Below are positions 587 to 10,588 of a stretch of 32,975 nt of DNA, piece by piece. The position numbers were made by a program, and so were the translations under genes. Source of the DNA: Eggerthellaceae bacterium (GTDB lineage: Bacteria > Actinomycetota > Coriobacteriia > Coriobacteriales > Eggerthellaceae); NCBI GenBank assembly GCA_017440565.1, contig JAFSHA010000158.1, forward strand, positions 1-32,975. Reading direction: 5' to 3'. The notes under the pieces are model-generated. The model was not told the origin of the DNA and did not search any database. It worked only from the letters and a program-made list of their open reading frames with translations. The first letter of the stretch is position 1, and each line of letters starts with the position of its first letter.

Positions 587-1882
587 ATGCTGTTTAAAGA
601 CATCGCCATCATCGACGAGAACTTCGAGTACCAAGAAGGCTGCTGGGTGGGCGTGACGGACGATCGCATTGCCTACATCGGCGCCGAGGCGCCAGCAGAC
701 GCCGCTGCGTACGGCGAAGTGTACGACGGCGCGGGCAAGCTTATGATGCCGGCTCTTTACAACGCGCACTCGCATGCGCCCATGACGCTGCTGCGCGGGT
801 TCGCCGAGAATCTGCCGCTCCAGCGTTGGCTCAACGAGAAATGCTGGCCCTTCGAAGCCAAGATGACCCCCGAGGACAACTATTGGGCCACCGTCCTTGC
901 CTGCGCGGAAATGGCGCGCTACGGCGTGGTGGGCTTCTCCGACATGTACTACGCCACGCCCGAGCGTGCGAAAGCCGTCGTGGAGGCGGGGCTTAAGGCG
1001 AACCTGTGCGAGGGCCTCATCGCCTTCGAGCCGAAGCCTTACGCTTCTTACCCTATTTGCCAGATGAACGAGCAGTACGTAGCCACGTTGCACGGCATGG
1101 CCAACGGGCGCATCCTCATGGACTACAACATTCATGCGGAATACACCTCCAATCAGCAGGTTTGCGAGGACATCGCCGCCATTGCGAAGGCGAAAGGCCT
1201 GCGTCTGCACATCCACTTGAGCGAAACGGCTTCCGAAGTGGCGGAATGCCGCGAGCGTCACGATGGGATGTCGCCCGTCAAGTACTTTGAGAGCATCGGC
1301 GTGCTCGACCTGCCCGTCACCGCCGCGCATTGCGTGTGGCTTGACGACGAGGATATGGACATCATGGCCGAGAAGGGCGTGTTCGTGGCGAACAACCCCG
1401 CATCCAACATGAAGCTCGGCAGCGGCTTTGCGCGCATTCCCGAAATGCTCGCGCGCGGTATGAACGTGTGTCTGGGCACCGACGGCATGGCGTCGAACAA
1501 CAGCCACGACATGTTTGCCGACATGTACCTCATGGGGCTTATCTACAAGGGATCGACGCTCGACCCGGCCGTGGTCACGCCGCAGCAGGTGCTGCGCGCC
1601 GCCACGCGTACGGGTGCGCTTTCGCAGGGCCGCGAGGACTGCGGCCTGCTGAGGGAGGGCATGAAGGCTGACGTGTGCGTGCTTGACGTGACGGGCCCGC
1701 AATGGTGCCCCATGACCGACCCCGTGTACAACGTGGTGTTCTCGGGTGCGGGCTCTGATGTGGTGCTCACCCTGTGCGACGGTCAGGTGGTGTATCGCGA
1801 CGGCGCATGGCCCACGATTGACCTCGAGCGCGCTAAGGCCGAGGTGGCGGCGCGCGCTAAGCGCATCATCGCCGAGCTGTAA
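587..1882 (+). CDS. Amidohydrolase, MtaD/SsnA-like (adenosine/cytosine-type deaminase superfamily)
   Basis: A 431-residue metal-dependent hydrolase of the TrzA/MtaD branch, whose characterised members deaminate 5'-methylthioadenosine, S-adenosylhomocysteine or similar purines. The metal-binding HxH is at residues 61-63 (NAHSHAPM), followed by the family's TLLRGFAENL segment. Further residues are HIHLSE near 208-213, His248 (TAAHC) and Asp299 (GTDGMASNN). Length is normal for the family. I chose ATG 587 over an upstream TTG at 563 because GGAAAGGA sits just ahead of it and the product then begins like its relatives. It is convergent with a minus-strand operon rich in SAM-using enzymes. Salvage of methylthioadenosine or SAH is therefore plausible, but the substrate is inferred. 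Confidence 0.85.
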   Translation: MLFKDIAIIDENFEYQEGCWVGVTDDRIAYIGAEAPADAAAYGEVYDGAGKLMMPALYNAHSHAPMTLLRGFAENLPLQRWLNEKCWPFEAKMTPEDNYWATVLACAEMARYGVVGFSDMYYATPERAKAVVEAGLKANLCEGLIAFEPKPYASYPICQMNEQYVATLHGMANGRILMDYNIHAEYTSNQQVCEDIAAIAKAKGLRLHIHLSETASEVAECRERHDGMSPVKYFESIGVLDLPVTAAHCVWLDDEDMDIMAEKGVFVANNPASNMKLGSGFARIPEMLARGMNVCLGTDGMASNNSHDMFADMYLMGLIYKGSTLDPAVVTPQQVLRAATRTGALSQGREDCGLLREGMKADVCVLDVTGPQWCPMTDPVYNVVFSGAGSDVVLTLCDGQVVYRDGAWPTIDLERAKAEVAARAKRIIAEL

Positions 1883-1895
1883 AGCGGCTGGAATC

Positions 1896-1947
1896 AACGG
1901 GGCCCTGCCTGGACGGTCAATCGATCGCATCCAGGCAGGGCCCCGTT
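1896..1947. terminator. Bidirectional hairpin terminator between convergent genes
   Basis: Perfect 18-bp arms (1896-1913 and 1930-1947, starting AACGGGGCCCTGCC) enclose a 16-base loop. The right arm is followed by TTGTT, and the left arm read on the other strand is followed by GATTCC. It lies 14 bases after the amidohydrolase stop and 20 bases before the stop of the minus-strand radical SAM gene, so it likely ends both transcripts. Confidence 0.85.
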
Positions 1948-1967: not shown

Positions 1968-2978
1968 CTACAGGTCGATCAGCGTGTCGTCTCCCAGCAT
2001 GAGTTTGGTGAAGCCGCATTGGCGCATGAACTCGCGGCAGGTGGGGATGTCGAGGCCGCGACTTTGGGAGGTCTCCTCGGCGGTGTCGCGCGGGTTTACG
2101 CCAGTTTCAGCGGTGATCATGTTCGCGCCTGAAATGTAGCCCATGGGCGTGTATTCGTGGATGCCTAGGATGGGAATGTTGCGGGCGGCAATGTTGGCAA
2201 GCGCCTGAACGGCAACGATATGCGAGAGCCTGAAGTCGGTGATGGTTCCCCTATCTGCAAACGGCGTGCCGGGAACGGGCGTGCGCTTCATGCAGCCGCT
2301 CTGAATGCTGCCAAGTTCGATGCTGAACAGAATGTGCTCGGCGAGTTCCTCGTTGGTGTGCTCGGGGCCGATGGGTTCGACGGCGTCCATGATGTCGAGG
2401 CCGGCTTCCTTGGCGTTGCGCATGGTCTGCTTGCGCTCCTCGGCGCTAAACGGCGTGACCTCGCCTTCGCCCAAGCGCCAGCAGTGGTACACCGCGTCGA
2501 CGCCCGCCTCCTTCATGCGGCGGAAATCCTCAACGCTCGAGTCGCCCACGTTCGAGATGATCTTCGTGGGGCCGGTCACGTTGGCCTTCACGAGCGCCAC
2601 CTTCTCCAAAAACTCGTCGATGCGATAGTCGGCCATCATCATGAGGTAGAGGCCGTACAGGTCGCCCCGTCCGGTGAAATTGCGCGTTGCCGCCACGATC
2701 TCCTCGTCGGTGAGTTTGACGCCGGAAAGACAGGTGTAGTCGGCTGCGAACGAGCAGAACTGGCAGTTGGCGCTGCACGGGTGCATCTCGAAGCCAATTT
2801 GACCGAAGATGGCCGCCGCATTGTTCGTGCGTGAGCGCATGCCGTGAGCCGCCGCGGAGCGCATGGCGAAGGCTTCTTCGGAATAGTCGGGCACGGAAAG
2901 CAGGGTGACTACATCATCCTTGGAAAGGGGCGTTTCGGAAAGCGCCTTGTCGATGAGGCGCTGGATATTTTGATTCAT
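1968..2978 (-). CDS. Biotin-synthase-like radical SAM protein
   Basis: A 336-residue radical SAM enzyme of the BioB/HydE/PylB-like group. The cluster-binding motif CSANCQFC is at residues 68-75 (CxxxCxxC). After it come a TIM-barrel segment and a C-terminal region resembling the biotin and thiamine synthesis associated fold. ATG 2978 is preceded by a strong GAAGGAGG ribosome site; an upstream extension of the frame overlaps the previous gene and is rejected. It is the last gene of a minus-strand operon, 32 bases after the ArsM-ArsS fusion. No bioA/D/F/H genes are nearby, so biotin synthesis is not indicated. The actual substrate is unknown; a role connected with the neighbouring arsenic- or metalloid-modifying enzyme is inference from context. 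Confidence 0.8.
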   Translation of the reverse strand: MNQNIQRLIDKALSETPLSKDDVVTLLSVPDYSEEAFAMRSAAAHGMRSRTNNAAAIFGQIGFEMHPCSANCQFCSFAADYTCLSGVKLTDEEIVAATRNFTGRGDLYGLYLMMMADYRIDEFLEKVALVKANVTGPTKIISNVGDSSVEDFRRMKEAGVDAVYHCWRLGEGEVTPFSAEERKQTMRNAKEAGLDIMDAVEPIGPEHTNEELAEHILFSIELGSIQSGCMKRTPVPGTPFADRGTITDFRLSHIVAVQALANIAARNIPILGIHEYTPMGYISGANMITAETGVNPRDTAEETSQSRGLDIPTCREFMRQCGFTKLMLGDDTLIDL

Positions 2979-3010
2979 GGGAATCCTCCTTCTAATGGTT
3001 GACGAGCGTA

Positions 3011-5203
3011 TTACTTTGCAGAATATTCCTTCACAAGCGAGCCGCCGCAGCTTGAACCGAATCCAGCTGCGCAGCTGTAGCACACCGGATGCGTGCGAAT
3101 GGCGCGTTCGGGAAGCGGGCCGCGGGCGAGGTCGAGCACCGTGGCGTCGCGTCCGTCGAGTTGGATGGGCAGATCGAGCACGTGGTTGACCTCGCAGTCG
3201 TACAGGCGCCCGTCGACGTCGACGTTTACCTGGTCGCGGCACATCATGCGTCCGACGGCTAGCGCGTTGAAGTTTTCCACCAGAAGCTTGAGGTACTCGT
3301 CGAACAGGTTGGCGTCGAGGAGGTCGTGCGCGAAGCGTCCCAGCGGGTAGTTGTTGAAGGCGAACAGCTCGTTAAACTCGATGCCCTCGCGCTCCTTCAG
3401 TTCGGCGCGGTAGAGGTCGGCCAGCAAATCCTGCGGAGGGGGCAGGAAGGGGCCGGATACGTTGTATACCAGGTCAAGCAGCAGCTCGCGGGGCTTTTCC
3501 GCGGCGTCTTCGCAGCTTGCCTCCGGAGCGCTGGCGCGCATTCCGGCAAGGCCGTAACCGCGTTCGTTGAGCTTCTTGATGGCGCGCATGGCACGTTCGA
3601 AGACGCCCTTTCCACGCTGCGCATCGGTGGCCGAGGAATCGAAGTAGGGAAGCGATGCCGTGATGGCAACACCCGTTTCCGCGTAAACATCGAGCAGCGG
3701 CTCGTAGGCGGGATCGTCGTAAAGCGTGAGGTTGGTTCGCATGATCACCTTGTCGGCAAGGCGCGAGGCCTCGCGCAAAAACCATGCGATGTCGGGATGC
3801 ATCTCGGCCGAGCCGCCCGTGACGTCCATCACCTTGAAGCCGCCTGCGGCAAAGCCGTCGAGGCAGGCCTGCAGTGTTTCGCGCGACATGAACTCGTCGT
3901 TTTTCGGCGAGCACTCCAGATAGCAATGGCGGCATGCCAGGTTGCAGCGGTATGTTACGTTGATTTGCATGGTGGAAGGGCCTGCCGTTGCCCTGAGCGC
4001 CTGCGGGGCACTCACGCGCTCCTCGAAGCTGGGTGCGCCGATGCGTTCAAGTGCGGCATCGAGGTACTCCAGGTCGACGGCCATTTTCCCGCGACGCGCG
4101 TTGACGGCGTCCTGCGCCCGCTTGAAGTCGAACTCTCCGCGATGCGCGCCTTTCGCCTTGATGTCGAAGTGGCGCCCGTAACGCGAATCCTCCAGCATGC
4201 GCGCCATGTTCGCGCTAATGGCGACGTCGCGACCTTTGATCAGGCGAATCTCGTCGGTGAGGTCGAAGTAGCGCGGCATCTCGGGGATGGTTCCCTTGTA
4301 ACGCGCGGTCTGATCGTAGTTCTCGTGGCGGTCCTCCAGACCGCGCGCCTTGATAGCGCGCACGGTGCGCGAGGTGAAGCTGGTGAAACCGAGCTTGGTC
4401 TCAAGGGCTAGGTCGCTCACATGGATGTCGTCGATGACGGTGTAGAGGAAGCTTTCCCAGCCGATTCGGGCCATCATGCGGCGGAAATCCTCCAGGTAGA
4501 TGGCGCCACCCAAGCATTCGCCGCGCAAAACGGGGTCGTTTCGCAGTTCCTCGGGCATGCGTCGATCGCAGAACACGTCGGAGAAGTACAGCTCTCCACC
4601 AGGTTTGAGCACGCGGTAGATTTCCGAAAACACCTGCTCCTTGAAGGGGGTCAGGTTGATGACGCAGTTCGAGACGACCAGATCGACGCTTTCGTCGGCG
4701 ATGCCCGCCGCAGCCAGGTCTTCGATATAGCCCGTGCGGAACTCGACGTTGGACTTTTCGAACCCGAACGCCTTCGCCTGGTGGTCCTGATAGCGGCGTG
4801 CCACTTCCAGCTGAGCGTCGGTCATGTCGATGCCGATGACGCGGCCGGTGGGGCCGACGAGCTTCGAAAGGACGTAAACGTCGCGGCCCACACCACAACC
4901 AAGATCGACTACGGTGCAGCCCTCGAGTGCGGGCGGGATGGGGCTTCCGCAGCCGTAGAAGCGGGCCATGATCTCATCCGCGATGCTGGGCATGACGTCG
5001 GTGACGTACTTCGGTGGCGCGTCGGTGGTGCAGCACGCGGCGTTGGTCTTGAGGTCGTCGGACCCGGCGAGGATGCGCCCGTAGTATTCGCGCACCTGCT
5101 CATGGATGGATTTTGCGGCATCGGGTTGCTGGCTGGCGTTAAGGCTCGGCAGCACGCGGGCGCGGGCCTCGTCTCCCGACATCCTGTGATTCACGTCGTG
5201 CAT
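3011..5203 (-). CDS. Fused ArsM-type methyltransferase and ArsS-type radical SAM protein
   Basis: A 730-residue protein that reads as two enzymes in one chain. Residues about 30-390 match the ArsM arsenite methyltransferases: SAM motif DLGCGVGRD at 100-108 and cysteines at 57/58, 180 (VSNCVINL) and 230 (GECLGGAIY), the arsenic-binding set of that family. Residues about 405-730 match ArsS, the radical SAM enzyme that attaches 5'-deoxyadenosyl to dimethylarsenite in arsenosugar synthesis. Here the cluster motif is CNLACRHC at 420-427, followed by the LLLDLVYN..GPFLPPPQ segment, MCR..VNVD..GRLYDCEVN, and a C-terminal CYSCAAGFGSSCGG at 708-721. The start ATG 5203 overlaps the stop of the upstream GTPase by one base (TAATG), suggesting translational coupling. 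Two consecutive steps of one pathway on one chain is inference. A selenium or other substrate remains possible, as related Cys-rich radical SAM proteins vary. Confidence 0.85.
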   Translation of the reverse strand: MHDVNHRMSGDEARARVLPSLNASQQPDAAKSIHEQVREYYGRILAGSDDLKTNAACCTTDAPPKYVTDVMPSIADEIMARFYGCGSPIPPALEGCTVVDLGCGVGRDVYVLSKLVGPTGRVIGIDMTDAQLEVARRYQDHQAKAFGFEKSNVEFRTGYIEDLAAAGIADESVDLVVSNCVINLTPFKEQVFSEIYRVLKPGGELYFSDVFCDRRMPEELRNDPVLRGECLGGAIYLEDFRRMMARIGWESFLYTVIDDIHVSDLALETKLGFTSFTSRTVRAIKARGLEDRHENYDQTARYKGTIPEMPRYFDLTDEIRLIKGRDVAISANMARMLEDSRYGRHFDIKAKGAHRGEFDFKRAQDAVNARRGKMAVDLEYLDAALERIGAPSFEERVSAPQALRATAGPSTMQINVTYRCNLACRHCYLECSPKNDEFMSRETLQACLDGFAAGGFKVMDVTGGSAEMHPDIAWFLREASRLADKVIMRTNLTLYDDPAYEPLLDVYAETGVAITASLPYFDSSATDAQRGKGVFERAMRAIKKLNERGYGLAGMRASAPEASCEDAAEKPRELLLDLVYNVSGPFLPPPQDLLADLYRAELKEREGIEFNELFAFNNYPLGRFAHDLLDANLFDEYLKLLVENFNALAVGRMMCRDQVNVDVDGRLYDCEVNHVLDLPIQLDGRDATVLDLARGPLPERAIRTHPVCYSCAAGFGSSCGGSLVKEYSAK

Positions 5204-6300
5204 TACCTGCGCCCCTCGTCGGTCATGCCGAAGCACTCGGTGAAGAAGATCTGGCAGTCAAGGTCGTAGCGGTCGCATACCTCGTCGACCGCGTCGTCGA
5301 CGATGCGCGCCAGCGGGCGCGACTCGCACACCGCGCGCGCGTTGATGATCATGCGCACCTTGTCATGCTCGCGCTCAAGCGTGCGCTCGTACTCGGTGTC
5401 GTAGTCGACACCGATGAGGGACGCCTTGCTGAAATCGCTACCATCTTCATGGGCGGTGGCGAACGTTTTGAGATGGGGGACGTTGCGCTTGCGCTCGATG
5501 AGCCCCATGCGGATGCTCTCGATCATGTCGTCGATGACGGCGTTGTAGTCGATGGCCGCACTGGAGTTGGTCTTGAAGAACAGGCGGCGGTTGTACCAGG
5601 TGAGCTTGCCTTCGGCTTGGTCGAACTTCTCGTCGTAGTTGACCTTGAAGTTCTTGACGGCGGAAAGCTTGGTGGTGACGAAGTCGACAAGCTCGTCGAT
5701 GTTGGTGCGCTCGCGAGCCGAAATGCAGATGACGGGAATGTCGGGGCAGGCGGTTTTGAGGAAGTCGACGTAGCGGGCGATGTCTTCCTCGGTAAGCAGG
5801 TCTATTTTGTTGAGGACCACGAGATCGGCTTCTTCGAGCTGCAGCTTCAGCAGGTAGACCAGCTCTTCGGGCAGGTTGATGTCGGCCTTCTCGGGCATGA
5901 TCATACGCAGGCGCTCGGGGTCGGCCACCACCATGAAGGGGGCAAGCGAGATCTCGTCGGCGCAGTCGCGTGCGAGCGGATGGTAGACGTGCTCAAGCGC
6001 GCCGACGCCGCAGCCGGGAATGTCGGACATGATGAAGCGCGCGCCGTCCTTGTCGCGCAGGCGTCGAACCTGGTCGACGAGGTTGTCCATCTGGTAGCAG
6101 ATGCAACCCGATGCGATTTCGACCACCTTGCAGCCGGTGGTTTGCGTGAGGTTGGTGTCAACCAAGTTGGCGCCCAGGTCGTTGGCGATGATGGCCGCAT
6201 TGCCGTTCCTGCCGTTTATGCACTCAGCCATGGCGATCATGGTCGTGGTCTTGCCGGCGCCCAAAAACCCGCTGACCACCATAAATTTCGTCTGACTCAT
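5203..6300 (-). CDS. G3E-family GTPase, CobW/HypB/UreG-like
   Basis: A 365-residue P-loop GTPase of the COG0523-like group. Walker A GFLGAGKTT is at residues 11-19, the metal-associated motif GCICYQ at 65-70, and the base-specificity motif NKID at 164-167. Characterised relatives deliver metals or energise insertion of metal centres, and some P47K-type members accompany corrinoid methyltransferases. The usual CxCC motif is present only as CIC-Tyr, lacking the third cysteine. ATG 6300 is preceded by AAAGGAG; the longer frame upstream is leader sequence. It is the first gene of the operon with the ArsM-ArsS fusion, and its stop overlaps the fusion's start. A helper role in metallating or supplying that enzyme is a guess from position. 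Confidence 0.85.
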   Translation of the reverse strand: MSQTKFMVVSGFLGAGKTTTMIAMAECINGRNGNAAIIANDLGANLVDTNLTQTTGCKVVEIASGCICYQMDNLVDQVRRLRDKDGARFIMSDIPGCGVGALEHVYHPLARDCADEISLAPFMVVADPERLRMIMPEKADINLPEELVYLLKLQLEEADLVVLNKIDLLTEEDIARYVDFLKTACPDIPVICISARERTNIDELVDFVTTKLSAVKNFKVNYDEKFDQAEGKLTWYNRRLFFKTNSSAAIDYNAVIDDMIESIRMGLIERKRNVPHLKTFATAHEDGSDFSKASLIGVDYDTEYERTLEREHDKVRMIINARAVCESRPLARIVDDAVDEVCDRYDLDCQIFFTECFGMTDEGRR

Positions 6301-6359
6301 GGTGACTCCTTTCGTAAAACTAAATTGGCTGCAACATGCAAATAGAGGATATAGTCTAA

Positions 6360-6392
6360 TAGTTGACGTCCAGTATATGACGATGTCCACTA
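6360..6392. promoter_or_regulatory. Operator-like inverted repeat over the operon promoter
   Basis: TAGTTGACGTC (6360-6370) and GATGTCCACTA (6382-6392) are inverted copies agreeing at 9 of 11 positions, separated by 11 bases that contain the -10 element. The spacing and position suit a dimeric repressor such as an ArsR- or TetR-type protein. No such regulator gene is adjacent, so the binding protein is unknown. Confidence 0.45.
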
Positions 6393-6400
6393 GTAAACAA
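6372..6400 (-). promoter_or_regulatory. Promoter of the GTPase/ArsM-ArsS/radical SAM operon
   Basis: On the minus strand, TTGTTT (6400-6395) and TATACT (6377-6372) are separated by exactly 17 bases, a good sigma-70-type fit. The region is clearly AT-richer than its surroundings. The predicted start of transcription is about 65 bases before the GTPase ATG. Confidence 0.65.
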
Positions 6401-6734
6401 TGGCCAATATGCGAAAGGCGAAAGAGGGGCATTCGAATGCCCGTGCCCTGCGCCTTGCGCCCAGCTCTCCGCTTCCTTGCGCCCGGGCTGTCCCCTTTGA
6501 AATTCGGCGCGCTGTCGTGCTTTGGGCTTGTATATGGCCCGTATGGGTGATGGGTGGGCGCCCCCTTCCTCGCTATTCTTTCCCATGCTGCGAGAAATGG
6601 GCCGTTGGGCGATGGATTGCCGAGGTAAATCGCCAGGCTTAAGCCGCGAAGCAGACGAGAGACGAGAGACTAGAGACTAGAGAGGCAGGGCGGCCTTCGT
6701 GCGGCCCCTTGCGAAAAGGAAGGGCGAGGACCCG
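6401..6734. other. Gene-free divergent intergenic region
   Basis: No coding gene is supported between the two divergent operons. The stretch holds a perfect 16-base palindrome, GGGCATTCGAATGCCC at 6427-6442, without a T-run, and a 7-base tandem repeat at 6653-6684. The promoter of the plus-strand radical SAM/importer operon should lie here, but I could not identify convincing -35 and -10 boxes. Confidence 0.55.
6653..6684. repeat. 7-bp tandem repeat in the leader of the radical SAM gene
   Basis: Four and a half head-to-tail copies: AGACGAG twice, AGACTAG twice, then AGAG. It ends 50 bases before the start codon at 6735. Such heptamer runs can change copy number by slippage, but nothing shows that this one affects expression. 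Confidence 0.8.
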
Positions 6735-7727
6735 ATGATCGTATCGTGGATGACCACCAACAAATGCAACCTTAAGTGCGTGCACTGCTACCAGGACGCC
6801 GAAGAGGCAACTGACAAGGAGCTTTCCACCGAGGAAGGCAAGAAGATGATCGACGAGATTGCCGCTGCGGGCTTCAAGATCATGATCTTCTCGGGCGGCG
6901 AGCCGCTTATGCGTCCCGACATCTACGAGCTGGTGGCTCACGCGGCCTCGCGCGGCCTGCGCCCGGTGTTCGGCAGCAACGGCACGCTCATCACGCCCGA
7001 GGTGGCGCGTCGTTTGAAGGAAGCTGGCGCGTGCGCCATGGGCATTTCCGTTGACAGCCTGGTGCCCGAAAAGCACGATCAGTTCCGCGGCCTTGAGAAC
7101 GCCTACGAGCTTACCATGGCCGGCATCGAGGCCTGCAAGCAGGCGGGCCTGCCGTTCCAGCTGCACACCACCGTGGTCGACTGGAACCGCGACGAGGTGT
7201 GCGACATCACCGATTTCGCCGAGCGCATTGGCGCCGTGGCGCACTACATCTTCTTCCTCATTCCCGTCGGCCGCGGCAAGTTCATCCAGGAAACCAGCCT
7301 GCAGGTGGTGGAGAACGAGGCGCTGCTCAAGGACATCATGCTGAAGTCGCAGCAGGTTTCCATCGACGTGAAGCCCACGTGCGCCCCGCAGTTCACGCGT
7401 ATTGCCAAGCAGCTTGGCATCGAGACGCGCTTCACGCGCGGCTGCCTGGCGGGTCTGACCTACTGCGTCATCGGCAGCGAGGGTATCGTGCGCCCGTGCG
7501 CCTACATGACCGAGGAGGCCGGCGACGTGCGCGAACAGCCCTTCGACGAGATTTGGCGCACGAGCCCCGTCTTCCAGAAGCTGCGCACGCAGGACTACGT
7601 GGGCGCGTGCGGCACCTGCGACTACAAGGACGGATGCGGCGGCTGCCGCGCCCGTGCGGCCTACTACCACGAGGGCAACTACATGGCGCAGGATGATTAC
7701 TGCGCGCATTCCCTGGGTCTTTGCTAA
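6735..7727 (+). CDS. Radical SAM/SPASM protein, NirJ2/AhbD-like
   Basis: A 330-residue radical SAM enzyme. The N-terminus MIVSWMTTNKCNLKCVHCY carries the CxxxCxxC cluster site at residues 11-18 and strongly resembles NirJ2/AhbD, the heme-pathway proteins that act on side chains of siroheme-derived tetrapyrroles. The glycine-rich SAM site FSGGEPL follows. The C-terminus is a SPASM-type domain with cysteines near GCLAG, RPCAYM and at 292, 295, 301, 304 and 323 for extra clusters. ATG 6735 has AGGA four bases upstream; a longer frame from 6699 is rejected because its first residues are unlike the family. It leads an operon with an FecBCD-type importer. No other ahb or nir genes are nearby, so heme modification is possible but peptide or cofactor maturation cannot be excluded. 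Confidence 0.8.
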   Translation: MIVSWMTTNKCNLKCVHCYQDAEEATDKELSTEEGKKMIDEIAAAGFKIMIFSGGEPLMRPDIYELVAHAASRGLRPVFGSNGTLITPEVARRLKEAGACAMGISVDSLVPEKHDQFRGLENAYELTMAGIEACKQAGLPFQLHTTVVDWNRDEVCDITDFAERIGAVAHYIFFLIPVGRGKFIQETSLQVVENEALLKDIMLKSQQVSIDVKPTCAPQFTRIAKQLGIETRFTRGCLAGLTYCVIGSEGIVRPCAYMTEEAGDVREQPFDEIWRTSPVFQKLRTQDYVGACGTCDYKDGCGGCRARAAYYHEGNYMAQDDYCAHSLGLC

Positions 7728-7770
7728 CGCGTTGCGGCCCGTGGTCTTTCGAAGCGGAGAGGAATCGCTC

Positions 7771-8763
7771 ATGTTGAAGAAAATTGCAATCATGGCGGCG
7801 AGCGCGGCGTTGGCGCTGTTGCTTGCGGGGTGCGCGGCGGAAGAACCGGCGCAGCCCGAGCAGGGTGGCGAAGGCCAGGCGGCCGGCGAGGTGGCGGCTC
7901 TGCATACGTTTGTCGACGACGCTGGCAACGAGGTTGTGGTGGAAAGCGCGAATCGCGTGGTTGCCTGCATGGGCAGCTTCGCCAACATGTGGGAGCTTGC
8001 CGGTGGTGTGCTGGTGGGCTGCTCGGATGATGCGTTTACGTTCGACAGCTTTGATATCGCCTCGCCCGGCGTGCAGAAGGTGGGCGATTTCTCCGGCATC
8101 AACCTTGAGGCGGTCATCGCGCTCGAGCCCGATTTCGTGATCATGACCTGCGGAACGGGCGGGCGTGGCGGCGATTCCAGCCAGCTTGACCTTGCCCCGG
8201 CGCTCGAGGCTTCGGGCATTCCGGTCGCCTATTTCGAGGTCACCACGTTTGCGGACTACGAGCGCATGATGGGCGTTCTGTGCGAGATCACCGGACGCGA
8301 TGACCTGTACCAGGCAAACGTCGCCGACGTGCGTGCCCAGATAGATGCCCTGGTGGCGGAAGTGCCTGCGGGCGAGGCACCCAGCGTGCTGTGCATGACC
8401 ACCTACTCGGGAGGTACCCGTGTGCAGTCAAGCGCCACCATGACGGGTGCCATGCTGGCTGAGCTGGGCGTTGCCAACCTTGCCGACGAGAATCGCAGCC
8501 TGCTTTCCGACTTCAGCCTGGAGTCCATCATCGAGCTCGATCCCGATTTCATCTTCGTGATCCCCATGGGCAATGACGCCGAGGCGGCCATGGCCGGCCT
8601 TGAGCAGGCGACCGCGGCCAATCCCGCATGGGCGACGCTCACGGCCGTGCAGGAGGACCGCTACGTGGCGCTTGATCCCAACCTGTTCCTCTACAAGCCT
8701 AATGCCAACTGGGCAGATGCGTACCAGTTCCTCTTCGATACGCTGTACGGTCAGGCTTCGTAA
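7771..8763 (+). CDS. ABC importer substrate-binding lipoprotein, FecB/BtuF-type (first importer)
   Basis: A 330-residue periplasmic-binding-type lipoprotein. The signal peptide ends in a lipobox, LLLAGC, with the lipidated Cys at residue 21. An acidic Gln/Gly-rich linker follows, then the TroA-like fold of the iron-siderophore/heme/cobalamin class (FVDDAGNEVVV, VGDFSGINLEAVIALEPDFVI, and LDPDFIFVIPMG near the end). ATG 7771 follows GGAGAGGA; an upstream in-frame extension overlaps the previous gene. It sits 43 bases after the radical SAM gene and 12 before the permease. The ligand cannot be told from sequence: ferric siderophore, heme or a corrinoid are all open. Confidence 0.88.
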   Translation: MLKKIAIMAASAALALLLAGCAAEEPAQPEQGGEGQAAGEVAALHTFVDDAGNEVVVESANRVVACMGSFANMWELAGGVLVGCSDDAFTFDSFDIASPGVQKVGDFSGINLEAVIALEPDFVIMTCGTGGRGGDSSQLDLAPALEASGIPVAYFEVTTFADYERMMGVLCEITGRDDLYQANVADVRAQIDALVAEVPAGEAPSVLCMTTYSGGTRVQSSATMTGAMLAELGVANLADENRSLLSDFSLESIIELDPDFIFVIPMGNDAEAAMAGLEQATAANPAWATLTAVQEDRYVALDPNLFLYKPNANWADAYQFLFDTLYGQAS

Positions 8764-8775
8764 GGCAAGCGGTGC

Positions 8776-9813
8776 ATGGTGGGAAGCATTCGCAACATGT
8801 TCTCGCGCATAGCGCAAGCACGGCCGTGCGGGTTCGCGGCCGTGCTCATGGCGTCGATTGCGCTGCTTGTCGTGCTTACGGCGGCGGCGTTTTTGGTGGG
8901 CTCGTCGTCGGTGAGCTTCGCCGAGCTTGCCGCGTGGGTGACAGGCGGGCAGGTAAGCGACGCGGCGAAGTCGATTTTGACAAACGTGCGCCTGCCTCGT
9001 GTGTTGGCCGCCTTGCTTGCAGGCGCGGCTCTGGCCGTTGCGGGCGCCGTTATCCAGGCGGTGCTTGACAACCCGCTGGCAAGCCCCAACGTCATCGGCA
9101 TCAACTCGGGTGCGGGTTTGTTCGTGCTGCTTGCCGCGGCCTTCTTCCCGCAGTACCTGTGGCTGCCGCCGCTGGCTGCGTTTCTGGGAGCGTTGGTCAC
9201 GGCGCTGCTGATCTTCGGTCTTTCGCTGGGCGCCAACATATCGCGCCTCACGGTGGTGCTTTCGGGCATTGCCATTACCACGGTGTTCGGCGCGGGCATG
9301 AACACCATCATGATCGTGGCGCCCGATGCCTATATAGGATCGGCGAACTTCCTGGTGGGCGGTCTGTCGGGCGTGCTCATGCGCGATTTGTGGTGGCCGG
9401 CGGCCTACATCGTCGTGGGCCTCGCCGTCGCGTTTACGTGCGGAAACCGCCTGAACATCATGTCGCTCGGCGATGATTCGGCCCATGCATTGGGCATGAA
9501 CGTGCGTGGAAACCGCCTCGGGCTGCTTACGCTTGCCGCCATGTTGGCGGGTGCTGCGGTGAGCTTCGCGGGTTTGCTGGGCTTCGTGGGCCTTATCATT
9601 CCGCATATCGTGCGCTTCTTCGTGGGGCATGACAACAGGCGCGTGCTTGTCATGTCGGCGGTGCTGGGCGCGGCGTTCGTAGTGGGATGCGATCTCCTGG
9701 CGCGCATCATGTTCGCCCCGTATGAGGTGCCGGTGGGCATTCTCATGGCGTTTTTGGGCGGTCCGTTCTTCGTCTACCTGATTATGCGGAACAGGAGGGG
9801 TGGCCTTGACTAG
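8776..9813 (+). CDS. ABC importer permease, FecCD/BtuC-type (first importer)
   Basis: A 345-residue multi-spanning permease. Family signatures are LPRVLAALLAGAALAVAGAVIQ..NPLASPNVIG near the N-terminus, LGMNVRGNR in the coupling region that contacts the ATPase, and GLLGFVGLIIPHIVRFFVGHDNRR. The hydropathy matches a ten-helix BtuC fold as a homodimer. No strong ribosome site precedes ATG 8776; ATG 8797 after GGGAAG is an alternative start that would shorten the cytoplasmic N-terminus. It overlaps the start of the ATPase gene. Confidence 0.9.
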   Translation: MVGSIRNMFSRIAQARPCGFAAVLMASIALLVVLTAAAFLVGSSSVSFAELAAWVTGGQVSDAAKSILTNVRLPRVLAALLAGAALAVAGAVIQAVLDNPLASPNVIGINSGAGLFVLLAAAFFPQYLWLPPLAAFLGALVTALLIFGLSLGANISRLTVVLSGIAITTVFGAGMNTIMIVAPDAYIGSANFLVGGLSGVLMRDLWWPAAYIVVGLAVAFTCGNRLNIMSLGDDSAHALGMNVRGNRLGLLTLAAMLAGAAVSFAGLLGFVGLIIPHIVRFFVGHDNRRVLVMSAVLGAAFVVGCDLLARIMFAPYEVPVGILMAFLGGPFFVYLIMRNRRGGLD

Positions 9814-10588
9814 CGAACGAGCCATCGAGCTTGCGGGCATCCGCTTCTCCTACAACCGCGAAGTGCCATTTATGAAGGGCCTTTCCGCGGCGTTTTCCCA
9901 TGGGAAGGTGACCAGCATCGTGGGTCCGAACGGGTGCGGGAAGTCGACCATGGTGAAGTTGATCGACGGGATCATCAGGCCCTTTGCGGGCGAGGTTCTG
10001 ATCGATGGGGAAAGCACGTTTGACATGGGGCATAAGGAGCGCGCCCGCAGGGTGGCCGTGCTCGCGCAGGCATCGCGCCCGCCGGCCATGACGGTCGAGG
10101 CGCTGGTGGCGTGCGGGCGCTATCCGCATTTGGAGCGTCAGGGACGTCTTGGGCCGCGTGACCGCGAGTTGGTTGAGGAGGCCATGTGCTTGGCGGGCGT
10201 CGAGCGTTTCCGCGGCCATGACCTGCGCCAGCTTTCCGGTGGCGAGCGGCAGCGCGCGTTCATTGCCATGACGCTTGCGCAGGACACGCGCGTTATCTTG
10301 CTTGACGAACCTACGACGTTTCTGGACATCGGCGCGTGCCATGACCTGATGCGCCTCGTTCGCCAGCTTAATGAGCAGCAGGGTAAGACCATCATCATGG
10401 TCATTCACGATCTCGATCTGGCTTTGCGCTATTCCGACGAGCTTCTGGTCATGGAACGCGGGCGCGTGACGTGCGCGGGTGGCGTCGAGGACGTGCTGGC
10501 CGAGGGCGCTCTCGAACGGGCCTTCGGCGTGAACGTAAGCGCGCACGAAGGCGCCTTCGGCAAAAACTACGCCATCTTCCCGAAGTAG
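9806..10588 (+). CDS. ABC importer ATPase, FecE/BtuD-type (first importer)
   Basis: A 260-residue ATPase with Walker A GPNGCGKST at residues 40-48, Q-loop LAQASRPPA, signature LSGGERQRA, Walker B VILLDEPTTFLD and switch His in VIHD. I place the start at TTG 9806 because AGGAGGGG (9793-9800) is five bases ahead. The in-frame GTG at 9800 overlaps that ribosome site. The gene overlaps the permease stop by eight bases, consistent with coupled translation. It energises uptake through the preceding permease and lipoprotein. Confidence 0.9.
   Translation: MTSERAIELAGIRFSYNREVPFMKGLSAAFSHGKVTSIVGPNGCGKSTMVKLIDGIIRPFAGEVLIDGESTFDMGHKERARRVAVLAQASRPPAMTVEALVACGRYPHLERQGRLGPRDRELVEEAMCLAGVERFRGHDLRQLSGGERQRAFIAMTLAQDTRVILLDEPTTFLDIGACHDLMRLVRQLNEQQGKTIIMVIHDLDLALRYSDELLVMERGRVTCAGGVEDVLAEGALERAFGVNVSAHEGAFGKNYAIFPK

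What the first reader, a model, noticed from the sequence alone, without database searches (positions are those of the whole stretch)
1968..6300. Three-gene operon: G3E GTPase, ArsM-ArsS fusion and a BioB-like radical SAM enzyme
Seen: a shared promoter at 6372-6400, a one-base stop/start overlap between the first two genes, a 32-base gap before the third, and a terminator at the end. Known: ArsM methylates arsenite and ArsS adds 5'-deoxyadenosyl to dimethylarsenite to make arsenosugar precursors; G3E GTPases handle metals; BioB-like enzymes insert sulfur or rearrange carbon skeletons. Inferred: a pathway for an organoarsenic (or related metalloid) compound in an anaerobic gut-type actinobacterium, with a second radical SAM step and a metallochaperone not present in the described ArsM/ArsS pair.
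Basis: partly seen in the sequence, partly recalled or inferred. Interest (0 to 1): 0.72.

Follow-up and report, generated by a model that had tools for sequence, protein, structure and literature searches.

The report
Arsenic-sugar operon with GTPase partner
A gut-type bacterium carries an operon that very probably turns arsenite into an arsenic-containing nucleoside; its GTP-binding protein recurs next to arsenic-biosynthesis enzymes in several unrelated bacterial groups, which points to an undescribed helper protein in making organic arsenic compounds.

Summary
The three genes are real and closely packed: G3E GTPase 6300-5203, ArsM-ArsS fusion 5203-3011, HydE/PylB/BioB-fold radical SAM enzyme 2978-1968, then an 18-bp hairpin. 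The fusion keeps all four arsenite-binding cysteines of ArsM and passes the ArsS cut-off. The linkage is conserved. Of 43 family genomes with this G3E, 36 have it within 3 kb of an ArsS domain; most others are cut by contig ends. A relative of this G3E also sits beside ArsL and/or ArsM in arsinothricin-type clusters of Streptomyces, Priestia, Alicyclobacillus, Pantoea and Enterobacter. The BioB-like clade was found only in genomes with ArsM and ArsS and is operonic with ArsM, G3E or ArsM-ArsS in four, in differing order. It lies within 5 kb of ArsS in 9 genomes (0.44 expected); in one genus a purine nucleoside phosphorylase sits between them. Best reading: arsenite is methylated and 5'-deoxyadenosylated, then deaminated and phosphorolysed to an arsenoribose; G3E handles As(III) or a metal; the BioB-like step is unknown. 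All chemistry is inferred. The kind is known (ArsM/ArsS arsenosugar biosynthesis); this is a new variant.

The parts
6343..6392 (.). 50-bp imperfect palindrome upstream of the operon; candidate operator overlapping the suggested promoter
   Evidence: the repeat finder, 75% complementary; sigma-70 scan finds no site here
5203..6300 (-). G3E (CobW/HypB/UreG-type) GTPase, 365 aa; P-loop GFLGAGKTT at residue 11, NKID at 164, CxC at 66/68, clade-specific C349 and C356
   Evidence: Pfam cobW 78.8 bits against cut-off 20.7; alignment A1; cysteine comparison; genome survey
3011..5203 (-). ArsM-ArsS fusion protein, 730 aa
4121..5116 (-). ArsM domain (residues 30-361): arsenite methyltransferase with C57/58, C85, C180, C230 at the four CmArsM cysteine positions
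   Evidence: phmmer to arsenite methyltransferase structures, E about 1e-87, residue alignment
3035..3976 (-). ArsS domain (residues 410-723): radical SAM CxxxCxxC at 420/424/427 plus DUF3641; Cys719 in the GFGSSCGG motif
   Evidence: TIGR04167 318.4 bits against cut-off 300; PF12345 137.8 bits
1968..2978 (-). HydE/PylB/BioB-fold radical SAM enzyme, 336 aa, CxxxCxxC at 68/72/75, no auxiliary cluster cysteines conserved
   Evidence: Pfam Radical_SAM; AlphaFold2 model pLDDT 89; Foldseek HydE 5few E 1.9e-18, PylB 3t7v E 1.1e-15; clade tree
1896..1947 (.). perfect 18-bp inverted repeat between convergent genes, probable bidirectional terminator
   Evidence: fold energy -51.7 kcal/mol, z -6.6
587..1882 (+). 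amidohydrolase of the MTA/SAH/5'-deoxyadenosine deaminase family, convergent with the operon; recurrent neighbour of ArsS
   Evidence: Pfam Amidohydro_1; NCBIfam PRK06038/PRK07228 below cut-offs; PDB TM0936 E 9e-66 and MTA/SAH deaminase 4f0r E 3e-59; linkage statistics

Best explanation
This is an organoarsenical (arsenoribonucleoside to arsenosugar) biosynthesis operon. [quoted passage not shown] Inferred: the neighbouring deaminase, with a purine nucleoside phosphorylase (adjacent in some relatives, elsewhere in this genome), converts the adenosine to its inosine analogue and splits it to an arsenoribose 1-phosphate while also recycling SAH. Inferred: the G3E GTPase uses its CxC motif and the extra C349/C356 to hold and release As(III), or a metal, for the synthase. 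Inferred and least certain: the HydE/PylB-fold radical SAM enzyme performs an optional radical tailoring step on the product.
For: ArsM half matches solved arsenite methyltransferases at E about 1e-87 with all four cysteine positions kept. ArsS half passes TIGR04167. G3E: one copy in each of 43 of 138 family genomes; 36 of 43 within 3 kb of an ArsS domain; 6 of the 7 others are on a contig without an ArsS hit, several at a contig end; 1 is truly separate. G3E relatives in ArsL/ArsM clusters: Streptomyces, Priestia, Enterobacter (ArsM only, no ArsL in the stretch), Pantoea and Alicyclobacillus plasmids. Deaminase within 5 kb of ArsS in 9 genomes, 0.44 expected, directly downstream of ArsMS in two other families of the order; phosphorylase between ArsMS and deaminase in G090 and G091, with the same neighbours at a contig edge in G092. 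BioB clade: 10 of 10 carrying genomes also encode ArsM and ArsS; operonic in four.
Against: No arsenic chemistry was measured. No ArsR, arsenite permease or arsenate reductase is apparent in the operon. Arsinothricin is made in E. coli with ArsL and ArsM alone (PMC8552651), so a G3E GTPase is not needed for that chemistry. The G3E tree has two separate arsenic-linked groups, and relatives in Planctomycetes, Chloroflexi and Bacteroidetes showed no ArsM neighbour. The BioB-like gene's nearest relatives (G390, G039, G040) are not next to ArsMS. The deaminase is a near-universal single-copy gene in the family (107 of 138), so it has a general role as well.
Confidence: 0.62

Rival explanations
1. 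The deaminase and phosphorylase only recycle by-products: SAH from ArsM and 5'-deoxyadenosine or MTA from radical SAM enzymes. They sit near ArsM-ArsS because such operons generate much SAH, not because they process the arsenonucleoside.
For: The family deaminates MTA, SAH and 5'-deoxyadenosine (general knowledge of the family; the best solved matches include an MTA/SAH deaminase). The gene is present in 107 of 138 genomes, many without ArsM-ArsS.
Against: Does not by itself explain why, in one genus, a 6-oxopurine nucleoside phosphorylase lies between ArsMS and the deaminase. Other radical SAM genes were not tested as a control for such linkage.
Confidence: 0.45
2. The operon is a detoxification device: methylate and adenosylate arsenite and export or discard the product, with no defined natural product.
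For: ArsM alone is a known detoxification enzyme; ArsM and ArsS would suffice. No glycosyltransferase of the arsenosugar type is apparent beside it.
Against: Efflux is the cheaper defence and no efflux gene is in the operon. Recurrent GTPase, deaminase, phosphorylase and radical SAM partners look biosynthetic.
Confidence: 0.25
3. The BioB-like enzyme is a passenger: it acts in another pathway and sits in the operon by chance in this genome.
For: Its relatives in G039 and G040 stand alone inside the menaquinone locus, and in G094 and G304 it is not near ArsMS. Order and position differ between genomes.
Against: The clade is well supported (100/97), was found only in genomes with ArsM and ArsS, and joins ArsM, G3E or ArsMS in four genomes at different positions, which suggests repeated recruitment.
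Confidence: 0.3
4. The substrate is not arsenic but another element such as selenium, tellurium or antimony.
For: Many ArsS relatives in this family are probably selenoproteins, read through one in-frame TGA, and G3E relatives in Oscillospiraceae sit with TrsS and a DUF5714/MbdU-like protein instead of ArsM.
Against: All four arsenite cysteines of ArsM are kept, and G3E relatives sit inside ars operons with ArsR, ArsB, ArsC, ArsD or ArsL.
Confidence: 0.08
5. The G3E GTPase inserts an ordinary metal, for example zinc, into a partner protein and does not touch arsenic.
For: G3E GTPases of known function are metal chaperones or insertases (general knowledge); CxC/CxCC is their usual metal motif; relatives without ArsM neighbours exist.
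Against: ArsM, ArsS and ArsL have no known metal need beyond the iron-sulfur cluster (general knowledge); the association spans two different radical SAM enzymes whose shared feature is arsenic; C349 and C356 are invariant together only in the ArsMS-linked group.
Confidence: 0.35

Closest known systems
ArsM/ArsS arsenosugar biosynthesis (Synechocystis SsArsM and SsArsS, mentioned in PMC8552651; ArsS studied by Cheng et al. 2021, cited in PMC12159101)
   Same: Same two enzyme families, predicted product a 5'-deoxyadenosyl dimethylarsenical
   Different: Here the two are one polypeptide with a GTPase partner, a deaminase (and in relatives a phosphorylase), and an extra HydE/PylB-fold radical SAM enzyme; no arsenosugar glycosyltransferase apparent beside it
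Arsinothricin cluster arsQML (Burkholderia gladioli, PMC8552651) and the ArsL-type clusters on Priestia, Pantoea and Alicyclobacillus plasmids and in Streptomyces
   Same: Radical SAM plus ArsM forming C-As bonds; the ArsL clusters seen here contain a G3E GTPase of the same subfamily
   Different: ArsL transfers the aminocarboxypropyl group, ArsS the deoxyadenosyl group; the published B. gladioli cluster is described without a GTPase
G3E GTPases (CobW, YjiA, ZigA, HypB, UreG)
   Same: P-loop, NKxD and a cysteine motif in the cobW domain
   Different: CxC instead of CxCC, extra C-terminal cysteines, no equivalog model passes its cut-off; partner is ArsM-ArsS
HydE / PylB / BioB radical SAM family
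   Same: Fold (Foldseek E down to 1.9e-18) and CxxxCxxC
   Different: 14-20% identity in the fold matches, no equivalog passes, no sulfur-donor or auxiliary cluster cysteines conserved

Membership tests
ArsM (arsenite methyltransferase) | Full-length match to solved ArsM | tested here: met
   E 1.6e-87 over residues 30-361
ArsM (arsenite methyltransferase) | Four catalytic cysteines (CmArsM C44, C72, C174, C224) | tested here: met
   C57/58, C85, C180, C230 at those alignment positions
ArsM (arsenite methyltransferase) | NCBIfam arsenite methyltransferase cut-off | tested here: not met
   PRK11873 187 bits against 263 for the fusion; this is a convenience model, not a defining feature, and the match to solved ArsM is far stronger
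ArsM (arsenite methyltransferase) | Methylates arsenite | not testable with these tools
   needs an assay
ArsS (arsenosugar biosynthesis radical SAM) | TIGR04167 above cut-off, CxxxCxxC and DUF3641 | tested here: met
   318.4 against 300; PF12345 137.8 bits; C420/C424/C427
ArsS (arsenosugar biosynthesis radical SAM) | Transfers 5'-deoxyadenosyl to dimethylarsenite | not testable with these tools
   needs an assay
G3E GTPase | cobW domain with P-loop and NKxD | tested here: met
   78.8 bits against 20.7; motifs at 11 and 164
G3E GTPase | Canonical CxCC motif | tested here: not met
   CxC in the Coriobacteriia and Oscillospiraceae group, CxCC in the ArsL-linked group
BioB (biotin synthase) | Second iron-sulfur cluster as sulfur donor | tested here: not met
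   only C68, C72, C75 invariant in the clade; TIGR00433 30 bits against 225
PylB / HydE | Equivalog cut-off | tested here: not met
   PylB 46 bits against 348, HydE 27 against 255
PylB / HydE | Same fold | tested here: met
   HydE TM about 0.78, PylB 0.77
Arsenosugar biosynthesis gene cluster | Sugar glycosyltransferase (TIGR04283 type) beside ArsS, as annotated in Hymenobacter | tested here: inconclusive
   present at NZ_CP095063.1; none apparent among the ORFs beside the window operon, but the rest of the genome was not searched
ars resistance operon | ArsR and efflux permease beside it | tested here: inconclusive
   none of the ORFs around the operon reads as one; no dedicated search was run

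The most novel reading that the evidence does not exclude
The G3E GTPase is a dedicated GTP-gated As(III) chaperone shared by two unrelated organoarsenical pathways (ArsM-ArsS and ArsL-ArsM), and gut Coriobacteriia make a new arsenic natural product whose nucleoside is deaminated, phosphorolysed and then rearranged by a HydE/PylB-fold radical SAM enzyme.
Probability: 0.25. Interest if true: 0.82.

Novelty: new variant of a known kind. Interest (0 to 1): 0.6.

Why it matters
If right, it adds a GTPase to the toolkit of arsenic biochemistry, gives a concrete candidate for the step between the arsenoadenosine and free arsenosugar, and predicts organoarsenical synthesis by common gut actinobacteria, which bears on how dietary arsenic is transformed in animals. 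It also ties together ArsS- and ArsL-type pathways through a shared accessory protein, a claim that can be tested with purified proteins.

Tried and rejected
Sulfur insertion by the BioB-like enzyme: rejected, no donor-cluster cysteines. A sigma-70 promoter at 6372-6400: not supported by the scan. A wider regulon from the palindrome: the half-site pattern I wrote found nothing in the window (it also missed the source site, so it was a poor probe). Counting all long ArsS fusions in the family as ArsM-ArsS: rejected after the tree split them and the second class proved to carry a different N-terminal domain. A single arsenic-specific G3E clade: not supported, two arsenic-linked groups with unlinked relatives. 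A companion second ArsM (F4), usual next to G3E in relatives: not found in this genome. Literature searches found no paper linking G3E GTPases with arsenic biosynthesis, within an open-access library only.

Full report
Observation. The three genes lie on the minus strand exactly as described: G3E GTPase 6300-5203, fusion 5203-3011, radical SAM enzyme 2978-1968. The stop of the first and start of the second share one base; the gap before the third is 32 bases. A perfect 18-bp inverted repeat at 1896-1947 folds at -51.7 kcal/mol, far below shuffles, between convergent genes. The promoter claim is weak: no sigma-70 site, but a 50-bp imperfect palindrome lies there (6343-6392).

Identity of the fusion. 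Residues 30-361 match solved arsenite methyltransferases at E about 1e-87, with the four arsenite-binding cysteine positions kept. Residues 410-723 pass the ArsS model TIGR04167 (318 against 300) and carry DUF3641. Many stand-alone ArsS relatives in the family are read through one in-frame TGA, as expected for selenoproteins; I did not align that position with the window's cysteines.

G3E linkage in the window's family. I searched 138 genomes of the family. The record L126, which groups with these proteins, is titled Eggerthellaceae, so I infer that family name; the handles carry none. G3E occurs once in each of 43 genomes. It lies within 3 kb of an ArsS domain in 36; six of the others are on a contig without an ArsS hit (several at contig ends, for example G060, G092, G093, G113), and G050 is a true separation. 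In the tree of long ArsS fusions, all ArsM-ArsS fusions form one clade that includes the window and members of two families of the order. Common arrangement in relatives: second ArsM (F4) - G3E - ArsM-ArsS. F4 keeps only one of the four arsenite cysteine positions. The window genome lacks F4.

G3E linkage elsewhere. In two Streptomyces genomes the order is ArsL - GNAT/FemAB-like protein - G3E - ArsM; both ArsL proteins pass NF040542 (478 and 489 against 450). Plasmid records give the same association: Priestia (ArsL, aquaporin, G3E, ArsR, ArsN1, ArsB, ArsC), Pantoea (ArsL, ArsM, G3E, aquaporin, ars genes), Alicyclobacillus (ArsM, ArsL, G3E, ArsN1) and Enterobacter (ArsM, G3E, aquaporin, ars genes; no ArsL in the stretch shown). 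I opened five of the seventeen plasmid hits; the fifth, Leptolinea, is not arsenic-linked. In the G3E tree the ArsMS-linked and ArsL-linked groups are separate, and unlinked relatives sit beside the latter, so arsenic linkage is recurrent rather than a property of one clade. Oscillospiraceae relatives, which fall within the Coriobacteriia group, sit with the radical SAM protein TrsS and a DUF5714/MbdU-like protein. A search of 396 genomes of the phylum with the Streptomyces G3E recovered only the window and G066 at E below 1e-25. CxC is invariant throughout; C349 and C356 are invariant together only in the ArsMS-linked proteins compared.

The BioB-like enzyme. The predicted structure (pLDDT 89) is a full HydE/BioB/PylB fold (HydE 5few E 1.9e-18; PylB 3t7v E 1.1e-15), but it passes no equivalog model. 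Only the three cluster cysteines are invariant, so BioB-type sulfur insertion is unlikely. Its clade is supported at 100/97. It was found in ten genomes (window, G039, G040, G086, G094, G112, G304, G370, G390, G414), all of which encode ArsM and ArsS; the background in the family is 59 of 138 genomes with a strong ArsS hit. It is operonic with arsenic genes in four genomes and within 8 kb of ArsS in G112. Its order varies, and the window copy's nearest relatives are not next to ArsMS, so recruitment probably happened more than once.

The deaminase. The convergent gene 587-1882 belongs to the MTA/SAH/5'-deoxyadenosine deaminase family. It is present in 107 of 138 genomes, nearly always once, yet lies within 5 kb of ArsS in 9 genomes where random placement predicts 0.44 (Poisson p about 1e-9, not corrected for shared ancestry; three of the nine, G090-G092, are one genus). 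In G304 and G370, of other families in the order, it directly follows ArsM-ArsS in the same direction. In G090 and G091 a purine nucleoside phosphorylase lies between ArsM-ArsS and the deaminase, and the same neighbours are seen at a contig edge in G092 (PRK08202 323 against 218). The window genome has a relative of that phosphorylase on another contig (46% identity). The order fits deamination followed by phosphorolysis of a 6-oxopurine nucleoside; it fits SAH and 5'-deoxyadenosine salvage almost as well.

Mechanism. Shown by family membership only: methylation of arsenite and 5'-deoxyadenosylation. Inferred: processing by deaminase and phosphorylase; As(III) or metal handling by G3E; radical tailoring by the BioB-like enzyme. 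That E. coli makes arsinothricin with ArsL and ArsM alone (PMC8552651) means a G3E protein would be an accessory that improves or protects, not a required catalyst.

Verdict. Real, conserved operon; a new variant of the known ArsM/ArsS type with an accessory GTPase for which I found no published link to arsenic in the open-access library searched.

Noticed in passing
L115:7237-9249, L089:9119-11155 and 12 related loci: A second class of long ArsS proteins in this family carries a divergent calcineurin-like phosphoesterase domain (about 370 aa, below Pfam cut-offs) instead of ArsM, and is followed by an SSS-like membrane protein.
   Followed up: partly
L133:4420-8913, L134:4414-8905: Streptomyces clusters ArsL - GNAT/FemAB-like - G3E - ArsM, probably arsinothricin-like biosynthesis with accessory genes.
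   Followed up: partly
L127:1022-2461, L128:6241-9351: Oscillospiraceae place a relative of this G3E GTPase beside radical SAM protein TrsS and, in L128, a DUF5714/MbdU-like protein.
   Followed up: partly
L043, L045, L048, L055, L219, L221: Other BioB-like clades (F5, F6, F33) sit with NMT1/THI5-type or other ABC transporters, often as two neighbouring radical SAM genes.
   Followed up: no
L036:6218-7228, L037:7644-8657: In-family relatives of the window's BioB-like gene (62-63% identical) lie on the opposite strand between genes that match the window's menB- and menH-like ORFs.
   Followed up: no
window 6699-10588: Divergent neighbour genes: a radical SAM/SPASM protein passing the NirJ2 model (537 against 500) followed by what reads as an iron/haem-type ABC transporter; not linked to the operon here.
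   Followed up: no
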